A stretch of 64,000 nt of DNA. Origin: Brachycybe producta (lineage: Eukaryota > Arthropoda > Diplopoda > Playtdesmida > Andrognathidae). The notes under the pieces were generated by a model. The model was given only the letters and a program-made list of their open reading frames with translations. It had not been told where the DNA came from and ran no database searches. The stretch is taken from positions 262,001-326,000 of the forward strand of contig JAUPFP010000024.1 in NCBI GenBank assembly GCA_036925085.1, in the 5' to 3' direction. Position numbers and translations under genes: made by a program. This document shows, piece after piece, positions 5,930 to 63,614 of the stretch. The number at the start of each line of letters is the position of its first letter. The first letter of the stretch is position 1.

Positions 5930-6135
5930 ACAGACAGTTAGAAATCGGGGAGAACTTCGGTAGGCTTCGCCCTTGTTATGACGACCGGCAACTTCTAATT
6001 GGTTTGTTGTGTGGTTTGACGTTGAGAAGGGCGGCGCATGTGACGTCAGACGACATAACCAACCAATTAGAAGTTGCCGGTCGTCATAACAAGGGCGGAG
6101 CCAACTGAAGTTCTCCCCGATTTCTAACTGCCTGT
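5930..6135 (-). mobile_element. Family A foldback MITE, copy 1 (206 bp)
   Basis: This is a non-autonomous DNA transposon made of two inverted arms of about 75 bp around an asymmetric spacer of about 55 bp. The ends read ACAGACAGTTAG and CTAACTGCCTGT. The arms carry CTTCTAATTGG/CCAATTAGAAG and a GC-box-like segment; the spacer holds TGACGTCA at 6041-6048. Flanks gtataacc and gtgtaacc look like a degraded 8-bp target duplication with one extra base on the right. The spacer lies in the GGTTTGTTGTG...ACATAACC orientation, called minus here. An open frame of 62 codons crosses the element, but it comes from the arm sequence and recurs in other copies, so I do not regard it as a gene. Confidence 0.93.
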
Positions 6136-7284
6136 CGTGTAACCTCCCTCAATGAGAGTTATTACACGGCACGACTGATTCCGATAGATGTGTCGATATA
6201 ATTATGTTCTTCTTCGCAAACTACAAACGTAATTAATACACATATGAGAGGGAGGAGGAGGAGGTGGTTGAAATTTTCGAATTTCTATGAAGTTCATTTG
6301 TCGTCAGGTCGTATTCTAAGGCGATTGGTCACTGGTCAACACATAAATGCATTCATTTAACCTCTACGAGGTTAAATGTAAATTATAAATTAAGATAACC
6401 AATGCAGAAATTCAGATCTATAAATTTGCTTAAAAGCAATTCACTGAAAATTGATGATTCCCTCAGTCATAATTGATTTAAGCTCAATATGCCAAGGTCC
6501 ATATCTTGTTCGTCTGTCTGTCTGTCTGTGTGTGTGGCAGATCGATTACTCCTTTTGGTGGAACAGGCAAAACTTAAAGTGTTTAGACTAGATTTTTAAA
6601 GACAGATAAAACACAATTATTTGGTTCGAAGATAGTAGAATATTCAAAGAGTTTTTATGACAGATGTTCGTGGACTTCATGGTTCCAGATATTCTTTGTG
6701 GGCTGCATGGATTTTGGAATGTTTTTATTGGCTTTGTCGACCTTAATAGCTTTGTGGGTTCTCATAAAGTTTCGAGTGCGCTGAGTTTGGGCTCAGTTTT
6801 CTACAAAATGTAGAGTTAGTCCTCTTCCTCCAGTTGAGACTCTCCTTTTTCTTCCGTTGTCCATGCAGAATGTTCGTTTTTATGAGCAAGGGAGGTTTGT
6901 GGCACCCTGCAAGAAAGAGTAGGGATTTCATTTTTTCCCCTTCTATGTTAGGGTGTTGGCTCTCTTGTCGTCTGCATGATGCCAAGACCCCTGCAGAGAT
7001 ATTTGATAGATTTACGACTAAACTCTTAAGTTTTGAGCATTTCTGGTGGTGGTGGTGGTCGTTGTCGTCGTCGTGGAACTTGTTGTTATATCTTTTACTT
7101 AGAATTTCGTTTTTTTTAAGCATCACTTTTATGATGATGCTTTCCCCCCCCCCCCCCCTTCTTCTTATTCTTCTTGAGATTTCACGATTTTTTCACAGCA
7201 GAAGGTGTTTTTAGAAAATAAATAGAAAATTGGTGAATAAGGTCAATGGTCAAAATCAGTAACTGCATTGGGAGACAAATCATA
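6136..7284. other. Noncoding; overlapping open frames not credible
   Basis: Frames of 126-127 codons lie on opposite strands over 6743-7214. They arise from (GGT/GTC)n and poly-C sequence (7144-7158) and have no recognisable domain. A (GTCT)n run is near 6512. Confidence 0.55.
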
Positions 7285-7625
7285 ACATTGTGACAATCAT
7301 ATCTTATGATGTAACTAACTAATAAATTGGTTATGATCAATCAGTCCAGATCAAGCCCACCAGGATCACAAAAGTTTGTCCTAAGTTTGCCCACGAAACA
7401 TACCAGGCTCATTGGGTTTGCATCCTCCTACATTTGCCAACCCAACCCATGGAATGGAATGGGCTGGACTTTATGTAGGTCTCTCTAATGGGTACGCCAT
7501 TCAATGGCAGTCATAGAATATGATACATTTATGAAATATTCTAATGATGAAGTTTTATAAAATTTGCTCTTGTGATCTGTTATAAGGTTGTGACAATTTA
7601 CTGTCATATGTGACAGGTTCTTAAT
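7285..7625. repeat. Possible degraded family D copy
   Basis: AACATTGTGACAATCATATC at the left resembles AAATTGTTACAATCATACC of the 52-kb element. At the right, AAGGTTGTGACAATTTACTG and GTCATATGTGACAGG resemble its interior. Between them is a GCCCA-rich stretch (7350-7470) similar to other sites in the window. The assignment is tentative. Confidence 0.35.
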
Positions 7626-7993
7626 ACCTTTATATATAATATGGTTAATTAAAAGAATTTCTTGGTAAGAAGATTCTTCTTCTGTTGTCTCACTATCCTA
7701 TGAGAGACTTTTTCAGTTATTGTCACTAGTAATTTACAGTCAGAAGAGGGGGATGGGGGGGGGGGGTCAATCATCACTCCGTAATGTCCACTGTAGTGTG
7801 GTGGTGGTGGTGGTGATGATGGGGGGGGGGGGGGAGAACACATCCGAATACTTGCTACTTCATAATAATGGAAGTATAAAGAATATAATTGAAGAGAGTT
7901 AAAGTGAATAATAATATTAAGAGAGAGAAGAAGATTGACATTTTAACCTTAACGACATTACAAGACCACCACCCCATTTACAATGGTAATTAT

Positions 7994-8273
7994 CAGGGCT
8001 CGGATTTTTATGCAATACATCAATCGAATGTTTCTCAATTTGTGGCTCCATTGCTAATTGTGAAGTAATAATTTTATTTAGAGAGATCACCCAACAAATT
8101 ATGCATTTTCTAATCAAAAATACTGGTTAGAGGCTAGAACTCTCTTAGTATCCGAAAACGCCACAATTGCACAGTTTTTTTTCTTAATGATGTTAATTAC
8201 TTCACAATTGGCATTTGGGCCACAAATTGAGAAACATATGCTTTTGATGTATTGCAGAAAAATCTGAACCCTG
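7994..8273. mobile_element. Family E hAT-like foldback, copy 1 (about 280 bp)
   Basis: Ends CAGGGCTCGGATTTTTATGC and AAAAATCTGAACCCTG. The arms extend inward about 80 bp through ATGTTTCTCAATTTGTGGC and ACTTCACAATTGGCATTTGG. CAGGG/CCCTG ends are typical of hAT non-autonomous elements. The flank taatta occurs on both sides, but the full 8-bp duplication is not clear because flanking bases also pair. An interior segment ACTGGTTAGAGGCTAGAAC is shared with the 58.6-kb copy. Confidence 0.82.
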
Positions 8274-9864
8274 ATAATTACTCATAGTTTGTTAACAATG
8301 TTGAGAGGGGGGGGGGGTGGCATATTGTATGTGATTTCGACGAGTATGTTTATATCAAATTTTGGATTTTGCATATATTTTAATTTAAATTCATTTTCTG
8401 AATGCAAAATACAAGAGGAGAGAGAGTGAGAATGAGGGAAAGAGAGAAATGTCTTAGATTTCTCAATAAATAAGAAATTACAATTAATATTTTCTAATTA
8501 ATTATTCATAATAATTTCTAATAATAAGCAGACAATGGTTGAATGTATATATATTTATTATGGATAATGATAGCTGTTACAATTAAATTAAGATCGTACG
8601 TAGACCTGTGTTAATTCATATTTGTGACGTAAGTTCCTCCTCCTCCTCCTCCTATACGTTACACATTGCCTCTTTTTTTAATTAAAAAATGATTGTGATT
8701 AAAATTATTAAAGATGCTTTGTGAAGCAAAAAAATAAAATATTATATGAAATTGCTTAAATTGAAATATGGGTTGTCACATGTGTGTTGTATATTTTAAA
8801 TTGTTGGCCTACCAACCCTCCTTTACAACAAACCTGTTGCATCTAAGTAAAGGTTGGGTGGGTGGGAGGCCATTACTTGACCCCTAACACAATCAATTAT
8901 AAGGGGGGGGGGGAAGGTGTGGAGGAGAGAGAGAGAGAGAGAAAAACCTTCCCTGAAAATGGTTCTTTTCTGTACTTTATGCGCTCATCTTGTATTTTCT
9001 CTTGAGAGTCCACTCACTCACTAGGTTCAAACTCTCAAAGAGTGATGAGTTTTTTAGTCTCACATGCAACTTTTATGGTTTTTGCCCCTTAGCGTCGTCA
9101 ATTGAAAACAAAAAGCTTGTGTGAGGGTAGTGTTTGTAGGGGTGGCACTCCTCCCCTCCCCCCTCCTTACCCTCTTTTTTTTTGCACCTAACAACTGTGA
9201 AACATTTGTATGCAAACACTTTCAGGGTCTCTTTTTTTTTTTTTTTGTAAAAATCTTATGAGATTTCATTAGGATATAAAAGATTTCTTAAATAGCAACC
9301 AAAGAATCTCAAGTGCAAAAATTCATTTGTAGAAATTAACATCTGAGAAATGTCTTTTTACCACCCCCCGCCCCCAAATCCCCCCTTATGATATGATATG
9401 ATAACATTACGAATTTGCCTTCTTTTTTTTAGTGTCGCGCGTGTCCAAATAAGAAACTTAATCATCATCAGGACATTTCAATAATTATGTTTCTTTGTTG
9501 AAGAAAAGATTATTAATCCTGCTGTGATTGAATATATTTAGTAGTCACAAATACATTCCTAAATTGCCATCGAGATCATCATCACTACAGAAATCATCAT
9601 AAAATAATGTGTTTGTCATTAAATATTTTGCAAGCCATATGGAAGAAAAGAAACAGACGAAAATAACAAACAACACAATTTGACATTTGATTTTGGTTCT
9701 TCTTAGGCCGAAATTCAAGAGTGAAACAACATGATGGCACACTTGAACTTCAACTTGAATCCAGTGACCTGAATTTGCAACTTAGAAAAAAAATCTGCCT
9801 GTGTTTTTAGTGAAAGTTTGAAAAGGGTTGCTTTTTTATATATATGTCAAAATCATCGGGAGAA
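8274..9864. other. Noncoding, AT-rich with GA and poly-C tracts
   Basis: Nothing beyond (GA)n near 8925-8942, (TCC)n at 8637 and homopolymers. Confidence 0.6.
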
Positions 9865-10072
9865 AATAAGACTGTCATATGACAGTAACTTGTTATATTT
9901 AGCTCAAAACCAGTGCAACGGTCGCAAAAACAAACTGACAAAACAGCAATAACGAAGAGATTGTCGTATGTACAACATAGGTAGTGATATCATATAGAAA
10001 AAAAGTCATAAACCGATGACAATCGGTATGATTGTCATCGGTTTATGACTTTTTTCTGTAATGTTGCCCTTT
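9865..10072. mobile_element. Family D element with terminal hairpin
   Basis: Shares with 52.0-52.4 kb the segments CTGTCATATGAC, TTTAGCTCA, GTGCAACGGTCGCAAAA (CTTGCAACAGTCACAAAA there) and the end GACTTTTTTCTGTAAT...GCCC. The right end is a hairpin listed separately. The left boundary is uncertain. It is inferred to be a non-autonomous element from the repetition alone. Confidence 0.6.
9998..10056. repeat. Perfect hairpin, about 27-bp arms, 5-base loop
   Basis: GTCATAAACCGATGACAATC is followed by ggtat and then GATTGTCATCGGTTTATGAC; A and T runs extend the pairing outward. It lies at the right end of the family D element, matching the position of the hairpin in family E copy 2. On its own it could be mistaken for a small-RNA precursor or a terminator. 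Confidence 0.93.
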
Positions 10073-12719
10073 AGTCACGAAATTCAAGTTTTTTTTTTTT
10101 TGTTTTTTCATTCTTGAATTTGAGCCTTTTCTTTAGTTGTTCTTTTTGACTGCTGGGTGTGCATTGGAATGTGGTTAGCCCATAAACTGTGGTCTTCTAC
10201 TAACCAACCAACCACTCCGTCCCGTCCCACCATCCTTCTATCCATCGTCAAGGGGATTCTTAGAGAGATGGAGGAGGAGGACGGGAGGGGACGAAAGATG
10301 GCCGTTGGGGCTTTTCTTTTTGCATTCATTTTAGTGTGGAGTTTTTAGCTAAGGGAGGTTAGAAGGAGACTAGGATGGACCACCACCTCAGGGGTGTTGG
10401 AATAAGAAGAAACCAAATGTTAGTGCAATTTGTGCAAATGAATGCAATATGGCTTATACACAGAAAAGTGCATATGTTTGTGTTATTTCGGATTTTGGGG
10501 GGGGGATTGAGGTGGGCAACAATGTGAAAAGAAAACAAAGAAGGGGTGGGGTGGGGGGAAGGTTGGGCTACACTTTAATGCGTTAGTTACACTGTAAACA
10601 GTGTAAATTGAGGCTGTAGGGACACGCACGTATAAACAGAGGAATGCTTAAAGTTGCTGCTTATGTTTATTTTCTCTTGTTTCTTCTTCTTCTACCAACA
10701 ACAACAACACAAGTTCTTTTTTTTTTTTCTAACCTCTAACTAACACCCCCCCCCCCTTTTAACATTTCAACTACTAGAATTTCTTCTCCATTTTGTTTTA
10801 TTTGTTCATCAATGGGGGGGGGAGGAGGTTTTTTTTATAAAAAAAATTTTTTTTGTTTGCTTTGAGTTTTGGGAATCAAAAATTACATTTTATTGGGGAT
10901 TTTTTGTTGTTGTTGTGCGTTATCATTTTCGACTCCTCCGCCCCTTTTGTTTAACTTCGATTTCCGAATTTCATTACAATTTCTAGCAATGTTTTAATGT
11001 GGAAAATAAATCCATGATCTCCACCCCCCCCCCCCCCCTTCTTTATCTGGTGTTTCGTCCTTTTTTTAATCAAGTGATGATTATAACTTTAATTTAACCG
11101 TTGTGTTACACAATTTTTTGCTAATAAAATTATTTGGACGTTTTTTTTTGTAGCCATAATAATTAATATAATTATGTTACATATTTGACGTCACAAACAA
11201 TTTCTTTCTAAATATTCGCAAAATCACAAATTAAATGGATTTGAACAGCGTCCTGTTTCTAAAAAACAAAACAATTCTTTTTGAATTTTATGAATTTTAC
11301 GAAGCCCTGTAAGGGACACACCCATTACAAATTAACAATTTGTCATTATGAATGTTAATTCGTAATATATTAATGTGAAACAGGGCACAGATGTCTCTAC
11401 CAGTCAATCAATATATTTTAAAATAAACTTTTGTTTATTCCGAACGATGCACTTATTTTTTTCTGATTTTTTTTTGTCAGTGTAAGTAAAATGTCAGTTA
11501 CATGGTATCACTTCTTAACTAACGGTTTGTTTTTATAATTATAAATACAAATACTAAATTTTTGTAGTCCATTAATTAAATGAGCTAAAAAAAAAAGCTA
11601 AAAATTGAGGCCCAGTCTAAAAACCTTTATAGTAAGGCCATCACATACAGCCCACCAGGCCCACAAAGCCTATGTTATTTTTTTTTTTGGTGAAGTTAAT
11701 TATTCTTTTCAAGTAGCCCAAAGGGCCTATGACAGAGTGACAATTTAGTCCAGAAATGCCACATGCTAAGTAAAATGAAGTTGATAATGTGCGTTTATGA
11801 AATTTATATTATGTTTCGTGGAATTTACACGAAACCTATGAATTCCATTAATATCTTGTGGATGTTATTAATTATTGTTTTAAATTAATAATAAAACTTA
11901 ATAAAACCTTTTTTTTTTCTTATATTTTTCTAGGTAAGTCCAAAAAACATTGTTTTCGTGAGTGAATGAATTTGGTTTAATGATGATAAAAGTGAAACCT
12001 TTTTACTTTCAACACTCACTGTCTTGTGTTGTACCCGTTATTCCAATTGGTAAGATGTTTCATAATTATGTAAAGTTCTTTCTATTGTTGTTTGTGGTGG
12101 TGATATATTTCTACTTATGATCAGGGTGATAATTATGTTAAGAGGGGGGGGAGGGAGGTTGAATTGAAATAGTGGAAAATGTATTTAAGAAAAAAAGCCA
12201 CCTTCTTTTATTATTTCTCTTGTCTGCTATTATTTAAAAAAAAAACTGGCTTAAAGATATGATAATTGATACTGAGTGATAAATTGATAATATACAACTT
12301 AAGATAGAGAGAGTGAATGCTCTCTCTCTATTCTTGATGATGATGATGAACGTCCAGAAAGGGAGGGAGGGAGAGAGAGACAGGAGAATTTTTTTACTAG
12401 AAGAACTTCAGACTGAGACTGTCTGGAGCCCCATGCTGGTTGGTGGTGGTGATGAGGATGAGTCGATTAATATCTTATATTAGAAATAAGATAAAAGGCA
12501 AAACGAGGACAGTTAGTTTCAGGAGGGATGAGGAGAACTGGGGGAACTCAATCCTTGAGAGGAGGGGGGATGGAACCATCATATAAAAATGAGTTAAAAG
12601 TTAGAAAAATATGACGAATTTAACTCATTTCATGATTTTTCACGTTTATTTTGCATATTATTGTATAGTCAAGTGACCCGTAATTGCATTCTGTAGAACT
12701 CTTAAAGGTTAGACCAGGG
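10073..12719. other. Noncoding, homopolymer-rich
   Basis: Holds a T/A-run palindrome near 10829-10853, poly-C at 11024-11038 and a GCCCA-rich stretch at 11625-11665. Apart from the diverged S copy at 11711, no element or gene is seen. Confidence 0.55.
11711..11775 (-). repeat. Family S repeat, copy 5, highly diverged
   Basis: AGTAGCCCAAAGGGCCTATG, ACAGAGTGACAATTTAGTCC and GCCACATGC resemble the family core in the same order. It is the oldest-looking copy. Confidence 0.5.
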
Positions 12720-12925
12720 ACAGGCAGTTAGAAATCGGGGAGAACTTCAGTTGGCTCCGCCCTTGTTATGACGACCGGCAACTTCTAATTGGTTGGTTAT
12801 GTAGTCTGACGTCACGTTCTCCGCCCTTTTCAACATCGAACCACACAACAAACCAATTAGAAGTTGCCAGTCGTCATAAAAAGTGCGAAGCCAATTGAAG
12901 TTCTCTCCGATTTCTACCTGCCTGT
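12720..12925 (+). mobile_element. Family A foldback MITE, copy 2 (206 bp)
   Basis: Same structure as the 5.9-kb copy with the spacer in the opposite orientation (GTTATGTAGTC...ACACAAC). Ends are ACAGGCAGTTAG and CTACCTGCCTGT. TGACGTCA is at 12807-12814. Flanking octamers gaccaggg and ggccagga match at 6 of 8 positions and are probably the decayed target duplication. The right arm has drifted (AAAAAGTGCGAAGCC in place of the GC-box-like segment), so this is an older copy. Confidence 0.92.
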
Positions 12926-13644
12926 GGCCAGGAAGGGGGGGGGGGCAAAAAACAAGGGAATCCAATCCTTGCAAGGAACCATCATGTCAAACCATGGAAA
13001 AGTTAGAAAATATGAAGAATCATTTCATAATTTATCATTTGTAGTTTACAAATACAATGGTAGAGGTCTCTGTAATCGCATCTGAGGATCATATGGATCA
13101 GTCAATGTGCAATGGAAATGAACGTAGTGATATTATTGTGGCCAAGTTGATCATAAAAACCAGTCTGCTGCCTCTTTCTTCAAAAAGAGAGATAATAGTT
13201 TTTCTCTTAAAATATAAATAATGTTTTTTTCTTCATCATCATCATCATCATCTAATTCTACTTCTTCTTGTTGCTACTGGCCACATAAAAATAGAGGGAG
13301 AGTATGGAGGAGGAGAGGAGGGGTGAAATTCCAGACAAATGTTCCCTTCCTGAAAATGTTTCTTTCTTCCATGGGTGGTGGAATTCATGAACAAACATTT
13401 CATTTTGAAACTTTTTCAAAAGTTTTGATAAAACATTTTTTTTGTTTTGTCCTTGTGGCAAATGGAGTGACATCTAACGGCCAAAAACTGCATCTTGTAA
13501 GGCAAATAAAGAAGTTGATTATCCTTTTTTTTTTTTGGATGTGAGGTGGTTTTAGGAAAAGGGGGGTGGGGGAGTGATGAGGTGGCTGTCATAATCATGA
13601 CTGATGAATGAAGTTGCTGTTAGGAAATCGGCCCTTATTAAAGT

Positions 13645-14610: not shown

Positions 14611-14817
14611 ACAGACATTTAGAAATCAGGACGAACACAAGTTGGCTCCGCCCTTTTTATGACGAACGGCAACTTCTAATTGGTTGGTTATGTAGTCTGA
14701 CGTCACATGCTCCGCCCTTTTCATCGTGTGAACCACACAACAAACCAATTAGAAGTTGCCGGTCGTCATAAAAAGGGCGGAGCCAACTTGTGTTAGTCCC
14801 GATTTCTAAATGTCTGT
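14611..14817 (+). mobile_element. Family A foldback MITE, copy 3 (207 bp)
   Basis: Foldback with ends ACAGACATTTAG and CTAAATGTCTGT. Both arms carry the CACAAGTTGGC subtype and the same A-for-G change in the terminal motif (ACAGACA on both sides), showing arm matching. TGACGTCA is at 14698-14705. The flanks both contain acttt, but the target duplication is not clean. Confidence 0.92.
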
Positions 14818-17126: not shown

Positions 17127-17324
17127 ACAGACAATTAGAAAACGGGATGAACAGAAGTTGGCTCCGTCCTTTTTATGACGACCGGCAACTTCTAATTGGT
17201 TTGTTGTGTGGTTCGACGTTGAAAAGGTCTGTGACGTCAGATTACATAAACAACCAATTAGAAGTTGCCGGTCGTCATAAAAAGGACGGAGCCAACTTCT
17301 GTTTATCCCGTTTTCTAATTGTCT
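17127..17324 (-). mobile_element. Family A foldback MITE, copy 4 (about 198 bp)
   Basis: Both arms are of a distinct subtype: AATTAGAAAACGGGAT, AACAGAAGTTGG and GGCTCCGTCC occur on both sides. The spacer is shorter and has lost the internal GGGCGGAGC, reading GAAAAGGTCTGTGACGTCAG. TGACGTCA is at 17232-17239. The right end stops at GTCT, about two bases short. Flanks agaaaacag and aagaaacag match at 8 of 9 positions. Confidence 0.9.
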
Positions 17325-18250: not shown

Positions 18251-18282
18251 CTTAAAACCGGGAATTCAATTATGATGTCCGT

Positions 18283-18426
18283 GATTGGTTTGTGGTGGTG
18301 TGGTTCGACGTTGAAAAGAGCGGAGCATGTGACGTCAGCACTACATAACCAACCAATTAGAAGTTGCCGGTCATCATAAAAAAGGGCGGAGCCAACTGAA
18401 GTTCTCTCCGATTTCTAACTGCATGT
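18283..18426 (-). mobile_element. Family A MITE, copy 5, left arm missing
   Basis: Only the spacer and right arm are present: ATTGGTTTGTGG at the left edge, TGACGTCA at 18330-18337, CCAATTAGAAGTTGCC, then the GC-box-like segment and terminal CTAACTGCATGT. The outer left arm is absent; the sequence upstream is a GGATC-rich block of different character. This is either a truncated copy or one broken by a later rearrangement. Confidence 0.88.
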
Positions 18427-19386: not shown

Positions 19387-19594
19387 ACAGGCAGTTAGAA
19401 ATCGGAGAGAACTTCAGTTGGCTCCGCCCTTGTTATGACGACCGGCAACTCCTAATTGGTTGGTTATGTAGTCTGACGTCACATGCTCCGCCGTTTTCAA
19501 CGTCGAACCATACAACAAACCAATTAGAAGTTGCCGGTCGTCATAAAAAAAGGGCGGAGCCACCTGAAGTTCTCTCCGATTTCTAACTGCCTGT
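19387..19594 (+). mobile_element. Family A foldback MITE, copy 6 (208 bp)
   Basis: Complete foldback with ends ACAGGCAGTTAG/CTAACTGCCTGT. Both arms carry ATCGGAGAGAACTTCAG. TGACGTCA is at 19474-19481. Open frames of 81-85 codons cross it on both strands, as expected of a palindrome; neither looks like a gene. A clear target duplication is not visible, although catcg occurs on both sides. Confidence 0.92.
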
Positions 19595-22742: not shown

Positions 22743-22956
22743 ACAGGCAGTTAGAAATCGGGGAGAACTTCAGTTGGCTCCGCCCTTGTTATGACGACTG
22801 GCAACTTTTAATTGGTTGGTTATGTAGTCTGACGTTGAAAAGGGCGGAGCATGTGACGTCAGACTACATAACCAACCAACCAACCAATTAGAAGTTGCCG
22901 GTCGTCATAACAAGGGCGGAGCCAACTGAAGTTCTGGCCGATTTCTAACTGCCTGT
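22743..22956 (-). mobile_element. Family A MITE, copy 7, extended palindrome (214 bp)
   Basis: Flanked by ctttccgg (22735-22742) and ttttccgg (22957-22964), a 7 of 8 match supporting an 8-bp target duplication. Unlike the others, the left half of the spacer reads GTTATGTAGTCTGACG, the reverse complement of the right half (CGTCAGACTACATAAC). The palindrome is therefore extended inward and only TTGAAAAGGGCGGAGCATGTGA is left asymmetric. TGACGTCA is at 22854-22861. The right arm has an extra CCAACCAA. Confidence 0.93.
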
Positions 22957-23691: not shown

Positions 23692-23886
23692 ACAGGCATC
23701 TGTAGACAGCTTCAGAATTTCTTTGGTTCCGCCCTTTTATGAGCGTCAGAACAAATATCAACCAATTAGAAATTGAAAAGGGCGGGGCATGTGACATCAG
23801 ATCCCTGTAACAAACCAATTAAAAATGGATGACGCTCATAAAAGGGCGGAGCCAAAGAAATTCTGAAGCTGTTTACAGATGCCTGT
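23692..23886 (-). mobile_element. Divergent family A subfamily, copy 8 (195 bp)
   Basis: Flanked by a perfect 8-bp duplication tcgttttc (23684-23691 and 23887-23894), the cleanest boundary in the family. Terminal ACAGGCATCTG/CAGATGCCTGT and the GC-box-like segment are kept. The sub-terminal arm differs (AGCTTCAGAATTTC) and GACGCTCATAAAAGG replaces the usual GACGACCGG region. The spacer keeps AAAAGGGCGGGGCATGTGACATCAG; the CRE is altered to TGACATCA (23792-23799). This looks like a separate subfamily mobilised by the same or a related transposase. Confidence 0.92.
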
Positions 23887-27926: not shown

Positions 27927-28134
27927 ACAGGCATTTAGAAATCGGGACGAACTTCAGTTGGCTCCGCCCTTTTTATGACGACCGGCAACTTCTAATTGGT
28001 TTCTTGTGTGGTTCGACGTTGAAAAGGGCGGAGAGCATGTGACGTCAGACTACATAACCAACCAATTAGAAGTTGTCGGTCGTCATGAAAAGGGCGGTGC
28101 CAACTTGTGTTCGTCCCGATATCTAATTGCCTGT
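27927..28134 (-). mobile_element. Family A MITE, copy 9, chimeric arms (208 bp)
   Basis: Left arm is GCATTTAGAAATCGGGACGAACTTCAG; the right arm is of a different subtype (CAACTTGTGTTCGTCC and CTAATTGCC). The two halves therefore come from different subtypes. TGACGTCA is at 28040-28047. The flanks atatacac and atatgcgc (offset by one) match at 6 of 8. Confidence 0.92.
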
Positions 28135-30594: not shown

Positions 30595-30913
30595 TACCAA
30601 CCTATTAAACTCTTTGATTATTTTGTCTTTTAAGGAGTAAAACTTGAAAGTGTTTTAGAAACTAGAATGGTAACTTCATCACGTAATCATATTTTCATGT
30701 TGCTTAATTTCCAAACTGACCAAACGCGAATTGAATGTCTAATAAACCCAATTATTCATGTCAGTTGAATTCAACAGACATGAATTATTGGGTTTAGACG
30801 TTCAATTCAAGTGAGTTGATCAACTTAATTGACGAATGTGTTAAACCCAGCTTTAAGTGATTGAGCTACCCTTCTAGTTTCTAAAAAAAAAACACTATAA
30901 AACCACCTCAAGT
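30595..30913. mobile_element. Family B foldback with a private central hairpin
   Basis: Outer family arms are GTTTTAGAAACTAGAATGG and GAGCTACCCTTCTAGTTTCT, with ACCACCTCAAG at the far right. In place of the usual centre it holds a nearly perfect inverted repeat at 30728-30808, around TTGAATTCAA. See the separate entry for that hairpin. Confidence 0.75.
30728..30808. repeat. Near-perfect hairpin, about 40 bp per arm
   Basis: The arms begin GAATTGAATGTC and end GACGTTCAATTC. The inner part AACCCAATTATTCATGTC pairs with GACATGAATTATTGGGTT, and the centre GTTGAATTCAAC is self-complementary. Only a few bases fail to pair. Such a structure can only persist if recent or actively homogenised. Confidence 0.9.
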
Positions 30914-33504: not shown

Positions 33505-33710
33505 ACAGGCATTTAGAAATCGAGACGAACTTCAGTTGGCTCCGCCCTTTTTTATGACGACCAACAACTTCTAATTGGTTTGTTGTGTGGTTTGACGTTG
33601 AAAAGGGCGGAGCATGTGACGTCAGACTACATAACCAACCAATTAGAAGTTGGGTTCATCATAAAAAGGGCGGAGCCAACTGAAGTTCGTCTCGATTTCT
33701 AAATGCCTGT
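33505..33710 (-). mobile_element. Family A foldback MITE, copy 10 (206 bp)
   Basis: Flanked by aatgtttg (33497-33504) and aatctttg (33711-33718), 7 of 8 matching. Both arms share a private change, ATCGAGACGAAC on the left and GTTCGTCTCGAT on the right, so the arms were homogenised or copied together. TGACGTCA is at 33617-33624, with GGGCGGAGC immediately before it and CCAAT after it. Confidence 0.94.
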
Positions 33711-37190: not shown

Positions 37191-37398
37191 ACAGGCATTT
37201 AGAAATCGGGACGAACACAAGTTGGCTCCGCCCTTTTTATGACGACCGGCAACTTCTAATTGGTTGGTTATGTAGTCTGACGTCACATGCTCTCCGCCCT
37301 TTTCAACGTCGAACCACACAAGAAACCAATTAGAAGTTGCCGGTCGTCATAAAAAGGGTGGAGCCAACTTGTGTTTTTCCCGATTTCTAAATGCCTGT
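37191..37398 (+). mobile_element. Family A foldback MITE, copy 11 (208 bp)
   Basis: Flanked by a perfect 9-bp direct repeat aataaaatg (37182-37190 and 37399-37407). Ends are ACAGGCATTTAG/CTAAATGCCTGT, with CACAAGTTGG arms on both sides. TGACGTCA is at 37278-37285. The clean flanks and well-matched arms suggest a young insertion. Confidence 0.95.
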
Positions 37399-45565: not shown

Positions 45566-45853
45566 CCACTCGAACTCTCATTATTTTGTCTTTCTGGAAT
45601 ATAATTAATTAAGAGTAAAACTCGAATATGTTTAGAAACTAGAAGGGGCAGCTCAATCATTTATTATGTGTTTTTTGTGTGCTTTTTATTATATTGTATA
45701 AAAGTTTATAAATAAATTTATAAAACCTAAAATTACTATTAAGTGATTCAGCTACCCTTCTAGTTTCTAACACAGTTTTAGTTCTCCTCATTATTATTGG
45801 TCGTCTGAAACGCAGAAAATAACCAGAAAATTCTAAAATCAGCTGTTTATAAT
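45566..45853. mobile_element. Family B foldback (45.6 kb copy)
   Basis: The left side has CGAACTCTCATTATTTTGTC and TTAGAAACTAGAAGGGGCAG. The right side has TCAGCTACCCTTCTAGTTTC and ends AAATCAGCTGTTTATAA. That end also occurs, inverted, at the left edge of the 56.7-kb copy and directly at the right of the 60.3-kb copy, so it may be part of the element. Confidence 0.75.
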
Positions 45854-54766: not shown

Positions 54767-55215
54767 GGGCTCGCTTATACCTGCCTCACAGTAAGATGAA
54801 GCTTGTGACGTCAGTCATGTTGACGTACAATTTAGGCTTGTGTCATTTAGTTTGATAGAATTGGGGTTCTTGCAATTTTTTGTTATTACCTCCCCCCTAG
54901 CCCCCTTTTTAATCGGACAAAACTAAATTTTTGACAGGCATTTAGAAATCGGGGAAAACACAAGTTGGCTCTGCCCTTTTTATGACGACTGGGAACTTCT
55001 AATTGGTTTGTTGTGTGGTTTGCCGTTGAAAAGGGCGGAGCATGTGACGTCAGACTACATAACCAACCAATTAGAAGTTGCGTTCGTCATAAAAAGGGCG
55101 GAGCCAACGTCTGTTTATCCCGTTTTCTAATTGCCTGTAAAAAATTGTGGCAACAACACTTACGTCACAAGCTTCTCATCTTACAAGTGATGCTGCGACT
55201 ATATCAGGAGTAGAC
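54767..55215. mobile_element. Older foldback split by a family A insertion
   Basis: GTAAGATGAAGCTTGTGACG at 54791-54810 pairs with CGTCACAAGCTTCTCATCTT on the far side of the family A copy. Outer CTGCCTCACA and TGATGCTGC also pair partly. The left end TTAAGGGCTCGC matches, inverted, a site at about 48.77 kb (GCGAGCCCTTAA). The left arm carries its own TGACGTCA at 54806-54813. Confidence 0.7.
54934..55138 (-). mobile_element. Family A MITE, copy 12, chimeric and nested (205 bp)
   Basis: The left arm is of the CACAAGTTGG/ATCGGGG type; the right arm is of the 17-kb copy's type (GTCTGTTTATCCCGTTTTCTAATTGCC). This makes it a second clear arm chimera. TGACGTCA is at 55045-55052. The copy sits between the two halves of another inverted repeat (54781-54810 with 55159-55196), so it inserted into a pre-existing foldback. 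Confidence 0.93.
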
Positions 55216-56708: not shown

Positions 56709-57058
56709 ATGAACAGCTGATTCTCTAATTCTTGATTATTCTGTCTTTCATAAAAGCAACATTTAGAGAAACTAGAAAGTGTTTTAGAAACTAGAAGGGT
56801 AGCTAGCGTATTCACTTAAGATGCTATTTTCCACGTTAAATATCTTTCAAAATAGACTTTTTAAAGACAGAAATTTTAAAAAAAAACTCATTTGAAAGAT
56901 ATTTAACGTGGAAAATATCATCTTAAGTGAATGCGCTATAGCTACCCTTCTAGTTTCTAAAACACGTTCAATTGCGTTTCTCTTCATTTTGCTCGTGAAC
57001 GATACAATAATGAAGATTTCGAGAGGCCGCCGAGTTTTACACTTAACCACCACCTTTA
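56709..57058. mobile_element. Family B foldback, best preserved copy
   Basis: The inner arms TTCCACGTTAAATATCTTTC and GAAAGATATTTAACGTGGAA pair exactly. The next arm segments TTAGAAACTAGAAGGGTAGC and GCTACCCTTCTAGTTTCTAA pair exactly as well. Outer segments TTCTGTCTTTCA and CGAGAGGCCGCCGAG are family hallmarks. This copy is the best template for a consensus. Confidence 0.82.
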
Positions 57059-58631
57059 AACATAATATGATTACAGCCTGAGACAAATTGTCCGCGTTAG
57101 TTCTAGTTAGTCTCTTGTTAGTTTAGCCTTGTATTTTAAAGCTTAGTTTTGGCTTTTTAGTATAAAACGTAAAATGAACTGTGATTTGACTTTTCAACTT
57201 TTTTTTTATAAGCTCAATTAGATTCTACGATTTTCTGGATTTTAAAATTGCGGAACAAATCAAGAAATGATTCTTTTCTTGTTGAATTCGTTTCTCTCGT
57301 TTTTTTTTCTTTTCAAATTGTACAATTTTTCATCGTAAAAAAATATACAATTGAGAAAATGTGTTGAATACGAATTGTAGAAGAAGAAGAAAAAAACATG
57401 TGAGATTTTTCTCTTCATATTTTATAAACATGAAATTAATAGTTGAATTTGGTTGGCGCTAATCTGGCGCCAATTTGAACAAGGGCCAAACGGAATAACC
57501 GCGAATTAGGCCCACAATACGACTGTACATATTTGGAATTTGAATAAGCGCAAGAATTGAATAAAATGTCAAATTTTTTTATTCTTGAATTTGTGGCGCT
57601 TAAGGCGTTTAAGGTTCCAGATGAATAAATAAAAATTGTTTGATTATTTTCAGAGGAAATTTCTTCAATTTTTCATAAATATCCTTTCTAGAGCTCGATA
57701 AAAAGATCTCTGAAAACAACATCTGAAGCATAAATTCCACTTAATAAATTGAATAATTAGAATAGGCTGCCAGTGGTATGATGGAAAACTGAATCAATTT
57801 TAAAGTATTATCTAAAAACAGATAATAATATTGAAAACATTATTTCAGAAAACTCTGAAAATTGAAATAGAACTCTAAAAAAATACATATAACGGAAAAC
57901 AAGAGAAAAAGTCACAATTTGTAGCTAGATTTGGTGCTGAATTACATAAAGAGTAATTGTTCTGTTCATTGAACTAGTCTAGCAAAGGCCCTTTAGAGTA
58001 GAAAAAATATGAGCAAGAAGTTGTTTTTGTTTATCAAATTCCATATTAACGTTGAAAAAAAAAAAAGATTTATGCAAATGAGGGAGTGACAAATTTTTTT
58101 TTTTACTCTAGTTTTAAGTGAATTTGAAGAAAAAAACTTTTCTTGTCTTATGGGTTTCACTTCTTTCTTTCAAAAATGTGCAAATGAAAAATTCGTTAGT
58201 TTCGCATGTGCATTTAGAATTAATGTGTCTATTTCTAGGTAAAGTATAGACTTTGATAAGATGGTAAATTAATTAAAATTGTCAAGTATTCATGTTGGAA
58301 AGGGGGGGAGTTATAACGACGACAACGGTTCCTAGTTCGTTTGTTCTTCGCTGAGTCGGGTTTGTCGGCAAAAAGGTTTCAATTCGATCATGTGTTTCAC
58401 ATTTCATAATTGAATTAGAGATTTGCGAATTAGGAACCAGGAGGAGGAGGACGAGGAGAATCGTGTTTCGTTTCTTCTCTTTTTACTGAACTTTTTACTT
58501 GCAATGTACTTTATTACCTTATTTTTTGGTGGGTTTTGCATTGCATATATAACATAATAATAATAATGATGACGATGATGATGATACAATTTATTAGACG
58601 TTTCTTTGGTTGTTTCATATATCATCATCAT
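57059..58631. other. Noncoding; GGCGC motif cluster
   Basis: 57449-57600 has GGCGCTAATCTGGCGCC, GAATAAGCGC and GTGGCGCTTAAGGCG, similar to motifs at the window start and at 53.93 kb; possibly an old repeat. Otherwise AT-rich. Confidence 0.45.
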
Positions 58632-58973
58632 TAGGGCACGGATATTTGTATGCGGAATATCAGGCAAATGTTTTTTTCAATCTGTGGCCCAAGAGCCAAC
58701 AGTTACGATTTTTTTCTAATAAAAAAACACTGGTTAGCGACTAGAACTTTCTAGTTGACACGTGATAATAAGCAGACATCTAGCCTCTAACCAGTCTTTT
58801 TGATTCTAAAGAGCATAATTACAGTTACATTCTAATGATGATTACTTCACAATTGGCACTTCCGATCCACTCCGATTTGTATGCGGAATGTCAAACACAA
58901 ATGTTTCTCAATCTGTGGGCCACAGATTGAGAAACATTTGTGTTTGACATTCCGCATACAAATCGGAGCCCTA
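58632..58973. mobile_element. Family E hAT-like foldback, copy 2 (342 bp)
   Basis: Flanked by atcatcat at 58624-58631 and 58974-58981, an 8-bp match expected of hAT elements, although the sequence is low-complexity. Ends are TAGGGCACGGATATTTGTAT and ATACAAATCGGAGCCCTA. The interior shares CACTGGTTAGCGACTAGAAC and ATTACTTCACAATTGGCA with the 8-kb copy. The right end contains a perfect hairpin, so the terminal sequence occurs three times in the element. Confidence 0.88.
58870..58968. repeat. Perfect 48-bp-arm hairpin with 3-base loop
   Basis: 58870-58917 is the exact reverse complement of 58921-58968 by eye, separated by ggc. The outer bases are CTCCGATTTGTATGCGG and CCGCATACAAATCGGAG; the inner ones are TCTCAATCTGTG and CACAGATTGAGA. 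It forms the right terminus of the family E element. Confidence 0.95.
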
Positions 58974-60290
58974 ATCATCATCATAGGGCCTAAAGTATGT
59001 GTCTTTTGTTCTGTGCAATTTTCCCTCCCTCCCCCTCTATTTTGACTATGTTAAGTAGCATTGAAGGAGGGAGAAAGGAGGAGAGGTCCAAATGGGGGAA
59101 TGGGAACTTGCAGCTCTCTCTCTTGAGGGTCCCAAACGTAATCTCACACACTCTATGAAGCTGAAGAAAAAAACAGAATCCTTTGTCCGTCCAGTTCCAC
59201 ATTTGGAATTGAAAAACACATAATTATTGGTAAGAGAAGTAAACTAAAATAACAAGAAAGGATGTTTTTCTAACGGCTGGCAGGCGATTCTTAAGAGTTG
59301 GCGATTTTTTTGAACAATTCTGTCTTCGATGCTATTTCATGGTTAATACCGATATTAACCGAATAATCAGAAAATAACCGAACTTAGGAGAACAAAAAAG
59401 TCCATCAAACAGAAGAAGTCAAGGAACCCTGATTTTCATCTTTAGTTTCAAACTTCAATGTTTTAATGGGAAATTTTGAGTTTTTGAGTTTAGTAAAAAT
59501 CGATTTTGTTGTGATTCATCGATTAAGCGCGCTATTCCTCCCCTATACCTGAGTGTCCATTTTGGGCAATGTGGCATTGGGATATATATGTTCCTAATAG
59601 ACATATATATTACGCGTGCCCAAACGTTTGTTGTTTAATCATGTATTATATAATAAAGAGAGAAGAAAATGCCCTTTTAAATAGGAGAGGGTTCTTCTTA
59701 TTTTTGTACTTAGTCGACCTTTTCTTCTAAAATACGGCTTAATGTCGTCTGTCGGCTTTTTTGTCTTTCTTTCCTCCTGTTTTACTCGCTAATTATTGTC
59801 ACGCCGTAATCCACACAAACATAATATCGTCGTCGTACTTAGTATTTGTGGGGGTTGGGACTTAGTAAAAATTGTAACAATAATAATAATACCACCACCC
59901 AAAGTTGGTGCTTTTTTTTTCTTCTTTTCTCTCTGTTTTTCTAATGAATTACAAGAAGATTATACTTTGTTTCAATGGAGTTTTCTATAACAAGGGGGGG
60001 GGGGGGTACATTAAAGTTTGTTTCAATAATAATAATAAATACATAAAGGAGAGAGTAAAGCCACACAAGCTTTAAAATGTAATCCTTTCGACTAATAACA
60101 TTAATATATAGCATTTTCGTTTATCTTTAAACCCCTCCTCCTCCTCCTTCTTCCATTTTCCATTCGTTATTACAATTTCTCTTTATTATTAGAGAGAAGG
60201 AGGAGGACCAAGGGGCCACTTTTGATTTCGAAACTTAGATAAATATTCTTCTGCAACCAAAAAATGCTTCTTCTTCTTCTTCTGGTGATG
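58974..60290. other. Noncoding; nothing recognised
   Basis: Simple sequence, a short ATATATATGT/ACATATATAT hairpin near 59581 and a G13 tract at 59994-60006. Confidence 0.55.
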
Positions 60291-60598
60291 GCTTAAGGTG
60301 GTGGTTTTCAAGTGTAAACGCGGTCTCTCCAGCGAGCTAGTCTTTCAGAAGTGCAAAATGAAGAGAAACTTTGAATGTGTTTTAGAAACTAGACGGGCAA
60401 TTTGAACATTTTCATGTTGATGTTTCTTTTCTTTTTTTTTAAAAAAAATAAGCTTTGTATGTTTGTAAACAAACCATTTTTAAAAAAGTTTATTTTGAAA
60501 AATATCGATGTGAAAATGAGCTACTGTTCTCGTTTCTTAGTGTTGACTCCTCTGTCAACGCAGAAATAATCAGATTTTGAAAATCAGCTGTTCATAAA
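60291..60598. mobile_element. Family B foldback (60.3 kb copy)
   Basis: It starts GCTTAAGGTGGTGGTTTTCA, the reverse complement of the AAACCACCTTAAG end seen at 61.87 kb. It continues through AAAATGAAGAGAAACTTTG and TTAGAAACTAGACGGGCAA, and its centre has AAAAAGTTTATTTTGAAAAA. The right outer arm is degraded; the end is AAAATCAGCTGTTCATAAA. Confidence 0.72.
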
Positions 60599-60983
60599 AC
60601 ATGTTCAAGTAAGAAAGCTGAATAAAACAGTAATTGTTATTTCGAGAATAACTATAAAAAAATCGCCAATAGTGTTGTATTTGGAAATATATATGATGGG
60701 CCATAAAGAATAATAATGGGTCCCACTCCCTCCTTCTTAAGTCTTTCTTCTCCTCCTCCTCCCTCTTCTTGGGTTATTTTTATAAATTTGTGAATAATTT
60801 CGAATTCACTTTGTGTATATGTACTTTATATAGATAGATAGATATACAAGAGAGAGAGAGAGATGGATTCTGCATTTGATATTTCTTTCTAGAAATAGAA
60901 GAAGAAGAAAACGAAGCCACTTTTGTGGATTCAAACTGAAAATTTCATTTCGTTATTTCCGACCACTACTACTAACATATTGA

Positions 60984-60986
<3 letters not shown>

Positions 60987-61014
<28 letters not shown>
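60987..61014 (+). repeat. (AG)14 microsatellite
   Basis: Perfect AG run of 28 bases. Confidence 0.97.
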
Positions 61015-61018
<4 letters not shown>

Positions 61019-61464
61019 CATGAATATAACTTCTTCTTTTTTAAAAAAAAGAACGTAAAATAAGGAAAAGTAGAAATACTTTTTAGTGTTTTGTACCTTT
61101 GGGAAATTGATGCATGTATAATTAATTTCATTTTTGAAAAATATACATCTGGAAATTTATCATTCGTCTTACGAATTCATGATATATAGATATATATTAT
61201 GAGTTTATACTTAAAACCGCCACATACATATAGTGTATATGTATGTATGAAATAAATATAACACGTCTATAGGTCCTACAAACACACAAGAGAGAGAGAG
61301 TGAATGAGTGAAATGGCAATTTTAGGGGCCTTTTCTTCTTACATTTTTATTGAAATAACGTTTTTTTTTTTTTCTTCTTCAGTCTTGTAGACAAAACAAA
61401 AAATGAATAATATCGAATACGTGTTTTCACGATTTCTATATAAGACTGAAAAAGTAAATAATTA

Positions 61465-61560
61465 TGCCGTGTTTATAGTGAGCCAGCCATAATAATGATG
61501 TCCTCTCTTAGGTTTTTATTTAAATTCTCCACGTGATTGCCCGCAACTATAAACGCGGCA
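61465..61560. mobile_element. PIF/Harbinger-like MITE (96 bp)
   Basis: The ends TGCCGTGTTTATAGT and ACTATAAACGCGGCA pair with one mismatch, and both sides are flanked by TTA. A 3-bp TTA duplication is the hallmark of PIF/Harbinger elements; the assignment rests on that and the short length. Confidence 0.65.
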
Positions 61561-61754
61561 TTAGAAGAGAGAAAGGATTGATTGTGTGTGTGGGTGGAGA
61601 GTCGTGTTTATGGTTGGCGTTTGCCGATGAAATCCTTCCTGATTTGTGTATTAATTTGAACCACATATCCGGAAGAGAGAGAGAGAACAATATCATCGCG
61701 AAATGATGACGATAAACGTGGCATTATTGTTCAAAATTAAACCAGAAATATGAA

Positions 61755-61878
61755 TATAAAATATCAACATGAAGTGAGCTACTACTACCTCTTCTAGTTT
61801 ATAAAACACTTTCAAGTTTCTCTTTATTTTGTTCTTCTGAAAAGATAAGAAATAATCAATAGTTTAAAACCACCTTAA
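61755..61878. mobile_element. Family B fragment, right arm only
   Basis: It carries AAAATATCAACATGAAGTGA, CTTCTAGTTTATAAAACACT, AAGTTTCTCTTTATTTTG and the terminal AAAACCACCTTAAG. There is no matching left arm nearby, so the copy is truncated. Confidence 0.7.
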
Positions 61879-63012
61879 GTTTACAAAGAATAGAAAGTTT
61901 TTGTTGTTGTTGTTGTTAAAGTTTGTTGGGCCCCAACTTAATTCTTTCGGCCCCTTTCTTGCCTTCCTCTCTCCCTCCCTCCTTCAGGGCTCATCTACAG
62001 TTTTGTTGGATTTTGTATAAATTCCACTTTTGAGCAGTTTCTGCATTAAATTGATTATTAAGAAACACACTTAACTAGTAAAGGAGGAGGAGGAGGAGTG
62101 CGTTTGATGTGTTGAATGCAAATTGCAGTTGTGCAAATGAAAGCTCAAGCCATTAATTGCAATCATAGAGAAAGAAGAAGAAAAAAAAAGACTGTAAAAT
62201 AAGAAGAGAAATAATGTAGAAGAAGAACCACCTTTCCACCCACCCTTTTTTCATTTTACTACTTTTAAAAGTTCTTGAATATCGAATGAGCTCCCCATTC
62301 TATGAATACACATCTGTGTCTTTATATGTGTTGTTACTATCAAATACAAAATAATGTGGATGTATAAAATTAGAGAGATTTTCTAGAGAAGGCAGAAAAT
62401 GGAGTGGTTTTTAGTATATATTGGAGTAAGGGAGGGGGAGGTATTTGATTGCGAACTGCCAGGGTAAAAAGGGAGGGGGGCGTTCTACTCAAGTGCACTG
62501 GAGACAATGTTGCATTTGCTGTCAATCCCTCGATTAAGAAGGGGGTGGAGAGGGGGGGCATATATAGTAAGCAAATGCCAAGGCGGCAAGATCAAAGGCG
62601 AAGACCCAATCAGCTGCTTAGAAATTATGCGCAAATCATGTTTTCGCTTCGATAGTTGCCACCGTCCAATTTGATATATAACATATACTGTAAGGAAGGA
62701 CGCGATCTGGGCTTTTTTTTTTGTCTCCCCTTCCTTCTCGGGTTTTTTTAGGGGACTTTATAGTTGAGGGTCAAACCCTCTTCCTTCAGTCTTTCCCCCC
62801 CCCCCCCACCCACCCACCCTTATGTAATATATTGGGGCTTTTTTTTGTGTATTAATCAACCTTTTCACCTATTTTTTTACACCTAGTTCTGTTTTCTTGA
62901 ACTTGTTTATTTATCTATTTTAGTATTTATCTATTTTTAGAAGAAGAAAAAAATTGAATTTTAACTAATTTTTTTTAGTTCTTCTAATATGGTGGTAACA
63001 ATGGTGGCTTTA
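61879..63012. other. Noncoding; nothing recognised
   Basis: Purine-rich runs, poly-C at 62795-62807. A 68-codon frame at 62449-62655 has balanced composition but no known domain. Confidence 0.5.
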
Positions 63013-63208
63013 GGGTTGGAACACACGCACAGGCGACTTTTGAAACACTTTTCGGCAACAAAATCAAGTCGAAGGTCGCTGGACTCTTGTCGCAATGTAT
63101 TTCTTTTTAGGAAAAGACGCCAACTTGTTACGCACACACACACACACATCGAAAATACATTGCAACGACGACAAGTCTTTGAAAAGTCGCCTGTGTGACA
63201 CAAGGGCC
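63013..63208. mobile_element. Foldback element with TTA flanks (196 bp)
   Basis: CACAGGCGACTTTTGAAACA on the left pairs with CTTTGAAAAGTCGCCTGTG on the right; further in, GCAATGTATTTC pairs with GAAAATACATTGC. TTA flanks both ends, which fits PIF/Harbinger. A (CA)n run occupies part of the centre. Confidence 0.65.
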
Positions 63209-63211
63209 TTA

Positions 63212-63435
63212 AAGTGTAAAATGGCGCTCCTCGAACTCTTCCTTATTCTGTCTTTCAGGTGGCAAAAATGAAGAGAAACTTAAATGAGTTTTAGAAACTT
63301 AGAAGGAAATCACTTTATAACTTGAGTATTTTATTAATGTTGATATCTTTCAAAATGAAGCGTTTTAAAACTTTTATTTTGAAACAGATCACAGCATGTG
63401 AAAAGTGGGGATTTTTCTAAAACACTTTCTAGTAG
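63212..63435. mobile_element. Family B foldback, right arm cut short
   Basis: Left arm segments CCTCGAACTCTTCC, TTCTGTCTTTCAGG, AAAATGAAGAGAAACTT and TTAGAAACTTAGAAGG are present. The centre has GTTGATATCTTTCAAAATG. The right arm ends at TTTCTAAAACACTTTCTAG, close to the family A insertion. Confidence 0.7.
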
Positions 63436-63445
63436 CCTGAGACAG

Positions 63446-63614
63446 ACAGGCAATTAGAAATCGGGACAAACACAAGTTGTCTCTGCCCTTTTTATGACGA
63501 CCGGCAACTTCTAATTGGTTTGTTGTGTGGTTTGACGTTGAAAAGGGCGGAGCATGTGACGTCAGCACTACATAACCAACCAACTTCTGTTTGTCCCGAT
63601 TTCTAATTTCCTGT
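63446..63614 (-). mobile_element. Family A MITE, copy 13, internally deleted (169 bp)
   Basis: The left arm and spacer are intact (TGACGTCA at 63557-63564), but the right arm jumps from AACCAACCAA straight to CTTCTGTTTGTCCCG, losing the inner 40 bp or so. The flanks tagcctgag and tagcccgag (8 of 9 matching) lie a few bases out because ACAG is doubled at the left end. It split a tRNA-like stretch that continues at 63618-63648. Confidence 0.9.

What the first reader, a model, noticed from the sequence alone, without database searches (positions are those of the whole stretch)
5930..63614. A foldback MITE family that disperses CRE, CCAAT and GC-box-like motifs
Thirteen family A copies lie in 64 kb. 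Twelve contain exact TGACGTCA (the palindromic CREB/ATF site) in the spacer, usually in the order GGGCGGAGC-ATG-TGACGTCA-GACTACATAACC-AACCAAT. The arms add mirrored CCAAT and GGCTCCGCCC motifs. If G+C is about 35%, roughly one TGACGTCA is expected by chance here, yet at least 14 are present. Motifs are retained although other positions differ between copies. Inference: either these sites are required for the element's own mobility, or the family seeds ready-made enhancer or promoter modules in the host genome.
Basis: partly seen in the sequence, partly recalled or inferred. Interest (0 to 1): 0.82.

Follow-up and report, generated by a model that had tools for sequence, protein, structure and literature searches.

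The report
Foldback transposon family spreading promoter-like motifs
One abundant kind of small, hairpin-shaped jumping DNA explains why the same promoter-like motifs recur across this stretch; the motifs were copied along with the element, and whether the host makes any use of them is not shown.

Summary
The window holds 12 family A copies, all with exact TGACGTCA, plus one sister-subfamily copy with TGACATCA. Fifteen TGACGTCA stand against 0.5 expected.

The family belongs to a superfamily of foldback MITEs (A about 206 bp) in an unnamed 295-Mb genome. Ends are ACAGGCA...TGCCTGT. Of 88 distinct full copies, 37 show a 9-bp target duplication, 10 an 8-bp one, 4 a 10-bp one, 38 none, as in Mutator-like (MULE) elements. 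At least 5366 exact CRE modules exist.

The CRE excess is common descent. Changes private to one copy are no rarer in the CRE (5 of 569 cells against 145 of 14063; low power). Genome-wide, 79% of CRE octamers are intact against 72-73% of flanking octamers, a small but significant excess that mixes inherited and private changes. Host retention is thus not shown. Between subfamilies the ends, GC blocks and CRE-CCAAT module stay 83-100% alike while A's outer arms fall to about shuffled level, pointing to constraint on the element. B reads TGACATCA.

No autonomous partner was found. Four of 11 MULE-gene 5' flanks carry copies (P about 0.02), a lead for promoter-biased insertion.

The parts
5930..6135 (+). 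family A foldback MITE, full; CRE at 6041
   Evidence: nhmmer 239.0 bits
12720..12925 (-). family A, full; CRE at 12807
   Evidence: 236.4 bits
14611..14817 (-). family A, full; CRE at 14698
   Evidence: 235.2 bits
17127..17324 (+). family A with a small deletion just before the CRE; CRE at 17232
   Evidence: 213.7 bits; alignment
18270..18425 (+). family A, 5'-truncated; CRE at 18330
   Evidence: 137.5 bits, model 47-205
19387..19594 (-). family A, full; CRE at 19474
   Evidence: 236.9 bits
22743..22956 (+). family A, full; CRE at 22854; 8-bp target duplication 7/8
   Evidence: 231.4 bits
23692..23886 (+). subfamily B copy; TGACATCA in place of the CRE; 8-bp target duplication 8/8
   Evidence: B model 213.3 bits; ends and duplication
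27927..28134 (+). family A, full; CRE at 28040
   Evidence: 239.6 bits
33505..33710 (+). family A, full; CRE at 33617; 8-bp target duplication 7/8
   Evidence: 229.0 bits
37191..37398 (-). family A, full; CRE at 37278; perfect 9-bp target duplication
   Evidence: 241.6 bits
54934..55138 (+). family A, full; CRE at 55045
   Evidence: 233.2 bits
63446..63614 (+). family A with internal deletion in the right arm; CRE at 63557
   Evidence: 161.6 bits; 169 bp long

Best explanation
The copies are non-autonomous foldback MITEs, most likely of the Mutator-like (MULE) superfamily, moved in trans by a transposase encoded elsewhere, now or in the past. Each is two roughly 95-bp inverted arms with a short loop. 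Each arm holds the terminal heptamer ACAGGCA, a GC-box-like block and a CCAATTAG block; the right arm of A holds the module TGACGTCA-14 bp-CCAATTAG. The CRE excess is the family's copy number: the motif was in the ancestors that spread, and roughly four fifths of the copies still hold it. Blocks shared between subfamilies are probably kept because an element needs them to spread, either as subterminal transposase or host-factor sites or as what is left of a promoter in the arms of the autonomous parent. Shown: copies, arms, target duplications, motif intactness, subfamily conservation. Inferred: MULE membership, trans mobilisation, the role of the blocks.
For: Target duplications (at most one mismatch): of 88 distinct full copies, 37 fit 9 bp, 10 fit 8 bp, 4 fit 10 bp (one copy in A-rich sequence fits both 8 and 9), 38 fit none (one search has the same table on 92 rows, four loci counted twice). 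An animal MULE, Muta1, makes 8- or 9-bp duplications (PMC5225508, passages); MULEs make 8-11 bp (PMC6446971, passages). The host has 21 MULE-domain hits, many in long open frames, and one MULE pair (C13/C28) also shows 9-bp duplications. 59 of 72 copies not chosen by the CRE hold it exactly; private changes are no rarer in it. A against B and C: terminal heptamer identical, GC blocks 0.83-0.88, module 0.84-0.86, outer arms 0.46-0.50 against 0.42-0.44 shuffled. Maize MuDR arms carry transposase-binding sites, promoters and enhancer motifs (PMC3310237, passages).
Against: No autonomous element with family A arms was found. Patterns for A ends running into another interior gave 6 and 3 places genome-wide. 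Five of these nine were fetched; they hold MITEs, deleted MITEs, and in one case (L143) an A end with 84 bp of other sequence and a second copy. By arithmetic such patterns catch only about 18-32% of true cases. The C13/C28 MULE has other ends (ACTAGCG). In 38 of 88 copies no target duplication was seen. CRE octamers survive better than the neighbours, which neutral decay does not predict for a CpG-bearing octamer. A 74-bp copy without the module or a complete GC block has perfect 9-bp duplications (L142); if it moved in that form, the module is not needed for movement.
Confidence: 0.7

Rival explanations
1. The family seeds working CRE/CCAAT/GC-box promoter modules, and the host keeps a useful share of them.
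For: In 150 kb of arbitrary loci 6 of 12 TGACGTCA lie in these MITEs, which cover 1.7% of the sequence. CRE octamer intactness is 78.8% against 71.6% and 73.4% for neighbours, significant. Four of 11 MULE-gene 5' flanks hold copies against 10.2% of 1-kb background windows, binomial P 0.02.
Against: Private changes inside the CRE are as frequent as elsewhere, though only 5 events were seen. Subfamily B carries TGACATCA. Inherited neighbour variants such as GACTTCAT and AACTACAT recur (listing) and lower the neighbours' intactness. No expression, chromatin or binding data.
Confidence: 0.12
2. The outer arms were swapped by recombination or template switching, so the shared core reflects descent without constraint.
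For: Hybrid elements with one arm type at each end are seen by eye (L092 4340-4532; L090 about 503-654). Long inverted repeats in nests favour exchange.
Against: The core is kept in A, B and C with the same 22-bp CRE-to-CCAAT distance, while A shares its outer arms with neither. Changes shared by three or more copies are also scarcer in the CRE (0.0105) than in the rest (0.0642) within A.
Confidence: 0.25
3. The elements belong to another superfamily with 8-9 bp duplications, such as Merlin.
For: 8-9 bp duplications alone do not settle the superfamily; no cognate transposase was found.
Against: Mode 9 with 8- and 10-bp minorities and long arms fits MULE best (PMC6446971 and PMC5225508 passages). 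Merlin transposases were not searched for.
Confidence: 0.12
4. The hairpins serve mainly as sources of small RNAs.
For: Long inverted arms that could fold.
Against: No Rfam match at gathering level in the window; no RNA data.
Confidence: 0.04

Closest known systems
Tm1 Mutator/Foldback family of root-knot nematodes (PMC3169594; abstract and passages seen)
   Same: foldback arms, 9-bp target duplications, MITE-like majority class, MULE transposase in the autonomous class
   Different: an autonomous copy is known there; 39 copies counted in M. incognita against thousands here; no CRE/CCAAT module in the passages seen; sequences were not compared
Muta1 of Aedes aegypti (PMC5225508; abstract and passages seen)
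   Same: animal MULE; both 8- and 9-bp target duplications
   Different: autonomous element that encodes its transposase
Maize MuDR and plant MULEs with multiple long arms (PMC3310237; abstract and passages seen)
   Same: arms carry transposase-binding sites, promoters and enhancer motifs; tandem arms occur, compare L012 and L092
   Different: plant elements; here arms are about 95 bp and the motifs are CRE-, CCAAT- and GC-box-like
Galileo and FB of Drosophila (a passage of the Tm1 paper; an abstract start in the listing; the rest recalled)
   Same: foldback architecture
   Different: Galileo carries a P-type transposase; its duplication length was not read

Membership tests
MITE | short (<600 bp), no coding capacity, inverted ends, target duplications, high copy number | tested here: met
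   206-column consensus, arms, duplications, thousands of exact modules; no coding capacity follows from the size
Foldback element | inverted arms make up nearly the whole element | tested here: met
   arms of 86-96 bp lie 14-35 bp apart in the six longest window pairs; other copies are broken into shorter or more distant pairs
Mutator-like (MULE) superfamily | 8-11 bp target duplications, mostly 9 | tested here: met
   9 bp in 37, 8 bp in 10, 10 bp in 4, none in 38 of 88 distinct full copies; one copy counted under 8 and 9
Mutator-like (MULE) superfamily | long terminal inverted repeats | tested here: met
   arms up to 96 bp
Mutator-like (MULE) superfamily | autonomous member with MULE transposase and the same ends | tested here: inconclusive
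   MULE genes exist, but none with ACAGGCA arms of its own was recognised in the loci read
hAT or P element | target duplication of 8 bp (defining length recalled) | tested here: not met
   mode is 9 bp
CREB/ATF- or NF-Y-bound enhancer | factor binding or reporter activity | not testable with these tools
   no functional data; motif match only
Host-retained regulatory element | slower decay of the motif than of neighbouring bases after insertion | tested here: inconclusive
   private changes no rarer in the CRE, but only 5 events in 569 cells; octamer intactness genome-wide is higher for the CRE, with inherited and later changes mixed

The most novel reading that the evidence does not exclude
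A MULE-type MITE superfamily of well over ten thousand copies carries a fixed GC-box/CRE/14-bp/CCAATTAG promoter unit in its arms and lands preferentially just upstream of genes, so that about half of the genome's perfect CREs, and many of its promoters, come from one transposon family whose arms keep the unit because it drives or attracts the element's own transposition machinery.
Probability: 0.08. Interest if true: 0.72.

Novelty: new member of a known kind. Interest (0 to 1): 0.36.

Why it matters
It shows how one abundant MITE family can dominate the count of a regulatory motif in a genome by copy number alone, a trap for motif-enrichment analyses. It also gives a natural test set, thousands of copies in at least three subfamilies, for asking which internal blocks a foldback MULE derivative needs in order to spread. 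If the hint of 5'-flank bias holds, it would be a useful system for promoter rewiring by DNA transposons.

Tried and rejected
Autonomous partner: six MULE loci were fetched with both flanks and parts of others. The family copy next to the L094 MULE frame (3839-4045) is a separate insertion with its own perfect 9-bp duplication GTTATAAAA; the second L094 copy (122-330) shows none. L092 is a nest. The C13/C28 MULE pair has other ends; the stretches read of the C5 pair gave no hit to the family model. Patterns for A ends leading into other interiors gave 6 and 3 places: all three and two of the six were read, and no transposase-sized element was seen in those 740-820-bp stretches. Merlin and KDZ transposases were considered, not searched.

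Known RNA family: no Rfam match at gathering level in the window. A Pol III promoter was considered only by eye.

Window genes: 39 stop-to-stop frames of 90 aa or more were listed; none was run against Pfam. The host was not identified.

Literature: no paper in the held library contains any of five family sequence strings. Topic searches list only the top rows of up to 4,039 papers; among the rows listed, no title or abstract start describes this family. Only PMC3169594, PMC5225508, PMC3310237 and PMC6446971 were opened, for passages.

Rows dropped before counts: in the per-site table I left out L001-L008, L010 and L012-L015, which were fetched because of the CRE, and used 72 full copies: 11 from the window, 7 from arbitrary loci and 54 from the 60 loci fetched by an outer-arm pattern. 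That pattern itself protects some arm columns. Truncated copies were left out. I lowered the main confidence from 0.72 to 0.70 and raised the host-use rival from 0.10 to 0.12 after seeing the small number of private changes and the significance of the octamer counts.
Full report
Check of the observation. TGACGTCA occurs 15 times in the window. Shuffles that keep dinucleotides expect 0.50 and never exceed 3 in 100. A profile built from eleven window copies finds 12 family A copies, one of them 5'-truncated; all 12 carry TGACGTCA. The copy at 23692-23886 belongs to a sister subfamily, B, and reads TGACATCA. Three CREs (11186, 42287, 54806) lie outside the elements.

Anatomy. The family A consensus is 206 columns with ends ACAGGCA...TGCCTGT. 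The eight longest arm pairs in the window are 63-96 bp and 85-95% complementary. Each arm holds a GC-box-like block (GGCTCCGCCC or its complement) and an AACCAATTAG block or its complement. In the consensus the exact CRE sits at the inner end of the right arm only; the left arm has the related GACGTT. Target duplications with at most one mismatch: of 88 distinct full copies 37 fit 9 bp, 10 fit 8 bp, 4 fit 10 bp (one fits both 8 and 9) and 38 fit none. One search gives the same table on 92 rows, in which four loci are counted twice. Read in the element's orientation, the 37 9-mers favour T at positions 2 and 3 (0.51 each) and A at position 7 (0.54) and avoid T at position 1 (0.05). The symmetric table counts both strands together and so cannot show a palindrome.

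Abundance. The host assembly is 295.3 Mb in 442 contigs and is unnamed. TGACGTCAGACTACATAACC occurs 5366 times, its reversed control never. The outer-arm pattern occurs 4526 times. In 15 loci taken at arbitrary places (150 kb, three of them on the window's contig, two of those adjoining it) models A, B and C find 14 copies; the window has 13 in 64 kb. Scaled up, that is roughly 27,000 copies, a rough figure from 14 observations. In the same 150 kb, 6 of 12 TGACGTCA and 17 of 26 CCAATTAG lie inside these elements, which cover 1.7% of the sequence.

Is the CRE kept? Of 72 full copies not chosen by the CRE, 59 hold it exactly. Changes seen in one copy only, most of which should have arisen after insertion, are 5 in 569 cells of the CRE and 145 in 14063 cells of all other columns (Fisher P 1.0); five events give little power. 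Changes shared by three or more copies, most of them inherited, run at 0.0105 per cell in the CRE and 0.0642 in the unnamed rest, the latter driven by a few diagnostic columns. Among 60 octamer windows with one CpG the CRE ties for tenth place in conservation. Genome-wide, with fixed flanks, the 32-mer is exact 2630 times. Freeing the CRE octamer gives 3337 (78.8% intact), freeing an upstream octamer 3674 (71.6%), and freeing the downstream octamer 3583 (73.4%). The differences are significant (Fisher P 2.6e-12 and 1.4e-7, on sets that share the exact copies, so rough). The CRE thus survives better than its neighbours in spite of its CpG. This speaks against purely neutral decay and is reported as such. 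It fits constraint on the element as well as retention by the host, because inherited neighbour variants (GACTTCAT, AACTACAT and others in the listing) count as losses. In the first 100 places, 27 are not exact; 15 of those 27 change the CpG, four of the 15 being one repeated variant.

Subfamilies. B was collected by its outer arm (747 exact arms) and C by its own (3446 exact arms); 20 loci of each were fetched. B loci hold TGACATCA in 13 of 20 and TGACGTCA in 2 of 20; C loci hold TGACGTCA in 19 of 20 and TGACATCA in 3 of 20 (some B and C loci are partial or hybrid). Fifteen of the 20 C loci share the flank GATAAA... (alignment), so most C copies travel inside a larger repeat and the C count is not an insertion count. 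Between A and B or C, with block limits set by eye, the terminal heptamer is identical, GC blocks are 0.83-0.88, the CRE-CCAAT module 0.84-0.86, and the outer arms 0.46-0.50 against 0.42-0.44 after shuffling. B and C are closer to each other (outer arms 0.70-0.73 against 0.50 shuffled). The distance from CRE-site start to CCAAT start is 22 bp in all three consensus sequences. So constraint, if any, acts on blocks and spacing and not on the exact palindrome. CCAATTAG is also a homeodomain-type core (recall), so naming NF-Y or CREB as the binder is a guess.

Which superfamily? Mostly 9-bp duplications with 8- and 10-bp minorities and long arms fit MULEs (PMC6446971 and PMC5225508 passages). The host has 21 PF10551 hits. 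Two copies of one MULE (C13, C28) agree at 98.6-100% over the compared ends and have about 70-bp arms starting ACTAGCG. Read by eye, they show 9-bp duplications (perfect in C28, 8 of 9 in C13). No transposase-sized element with A arms was found: 6 and 3 pattern places, of which five were read over 740-820 bp. Each such pattern would pass only about 18-32% of true cases by arithmetic, so a rare partner is not excluded.

Upstream flanks. Of 11 MULE-gene loci with some 5' flank read, four carry family copies there: L092 four, L146 three, L094 one, L090 one. The background is 10.2% of 1-kb windows; P for 4 or more of 11 is 0.02. Flank lengths differ (about 0.3-1.6 kb), three of the 11 loci lie on one contig (C89), three carry the same 1088-aa type of gene or a relative, and copies within a nest are not independent. 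Downstream flanks of the six fully fetched loci hold one A copy (L094) and one C copy (L091). In three of the four loci with copies (L090, L092, L094) the protein has C2H2-type finger matches at E below 0.001, some under the curated cut-off, and L089, L091 and L093 have none; L146 looks finger-like by eye. L099 also looks finger-like and has no copy in the about 340 bp read. This grouping was made after the fact and is a lead, not a result.

Conclusion. The strongest reading is a new family of MULE-like foldback MITEs whose promoter-like blocks were multiplied with the element. Maize MuDR arms are reported to hold transposase-binding sites, promoters and enhancer motifs (PMC3310237 passages), so promoter-like arms are not unexpected. 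A role of the blocks in transposition, or in expression of a lost autonomous parent, is inferred; use by the host is neither shown nor excluded.

Noticed in passing
L012:6586-7226: Three family A copies stand head to tail with the same 9-bp GTTAAGATG between them, as if repeated insertion or unequal exchange used one target duplication.
   Followed up: partly
L092:3716-4532: Nest of at least four family copies directly upstream of a 770-aa MULE frame; by eye the 9-bp ACAGAAGTT of an arm recurs at the insertion points.
   Followed up: partly
L142:37-110: 74-bp palindrome of the outer arms with a perfect 9-bp duplication (ATCGGGTAC) and no CRE, CCAAT or complete GC block; either a mobile minimal form or a deletion after insertion.
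   Followed up: partly
L143:39-359: An A end, 84 bp of other sequence and a second A copy lie between two AATTATTC (8 bp), as if a compound element with captured sequence had inserted as one.
   Followed up: partly
L089:1313-5485 and C28 (L097, L098): A MULE with an open 796-aa frame, about 70-bp arms and 9-bp duplications, nearly identical at both ends in two contigs; possibly recently active.
   Followed up: partly
L095; C2, C5 and C38 hits: Pairs of MULE frames (1088 aa; 1003, 1088 or 844 aa in some) head to head, with the same spacing on C2 and C5 and shorter on C38; on C5 the frame is followed by a long minisatellite (L096 about 1700-2700).
   Followed up: no
L121-L140: 15 of 20 C loci share the flank GATAAA..., so C has apparently been captured by a larger abundant repeat.
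   Followed up: no
C1:7270759, 7302359, 7344762, 7385738: Four copies with the same double variant TGATGGCA at about 31-42 kb spacing suggest a segmental duplication array.
   Followed up: no
window 56775-56969, 30653-30886, 45606-45796: Another inverted-repeat family with arms like TTTTAGAAACTAGAAGGGTAGCT; similar sequence by eye in L092 and L144.
   Followed up: no
window 7986-8281 and 58644-58968: Inverted repeats with related GTTTCTCAATTTGTGGCCC-type arms, a further foldback-like repeat; similar sequence by eye at the start of L141.
   Followed up: no
L018:9752-10000: 27-bp tandem array of TGTGATGTCAGAAA..., another repeat that multiplies a CRE-like octamer.
   Followed up: no
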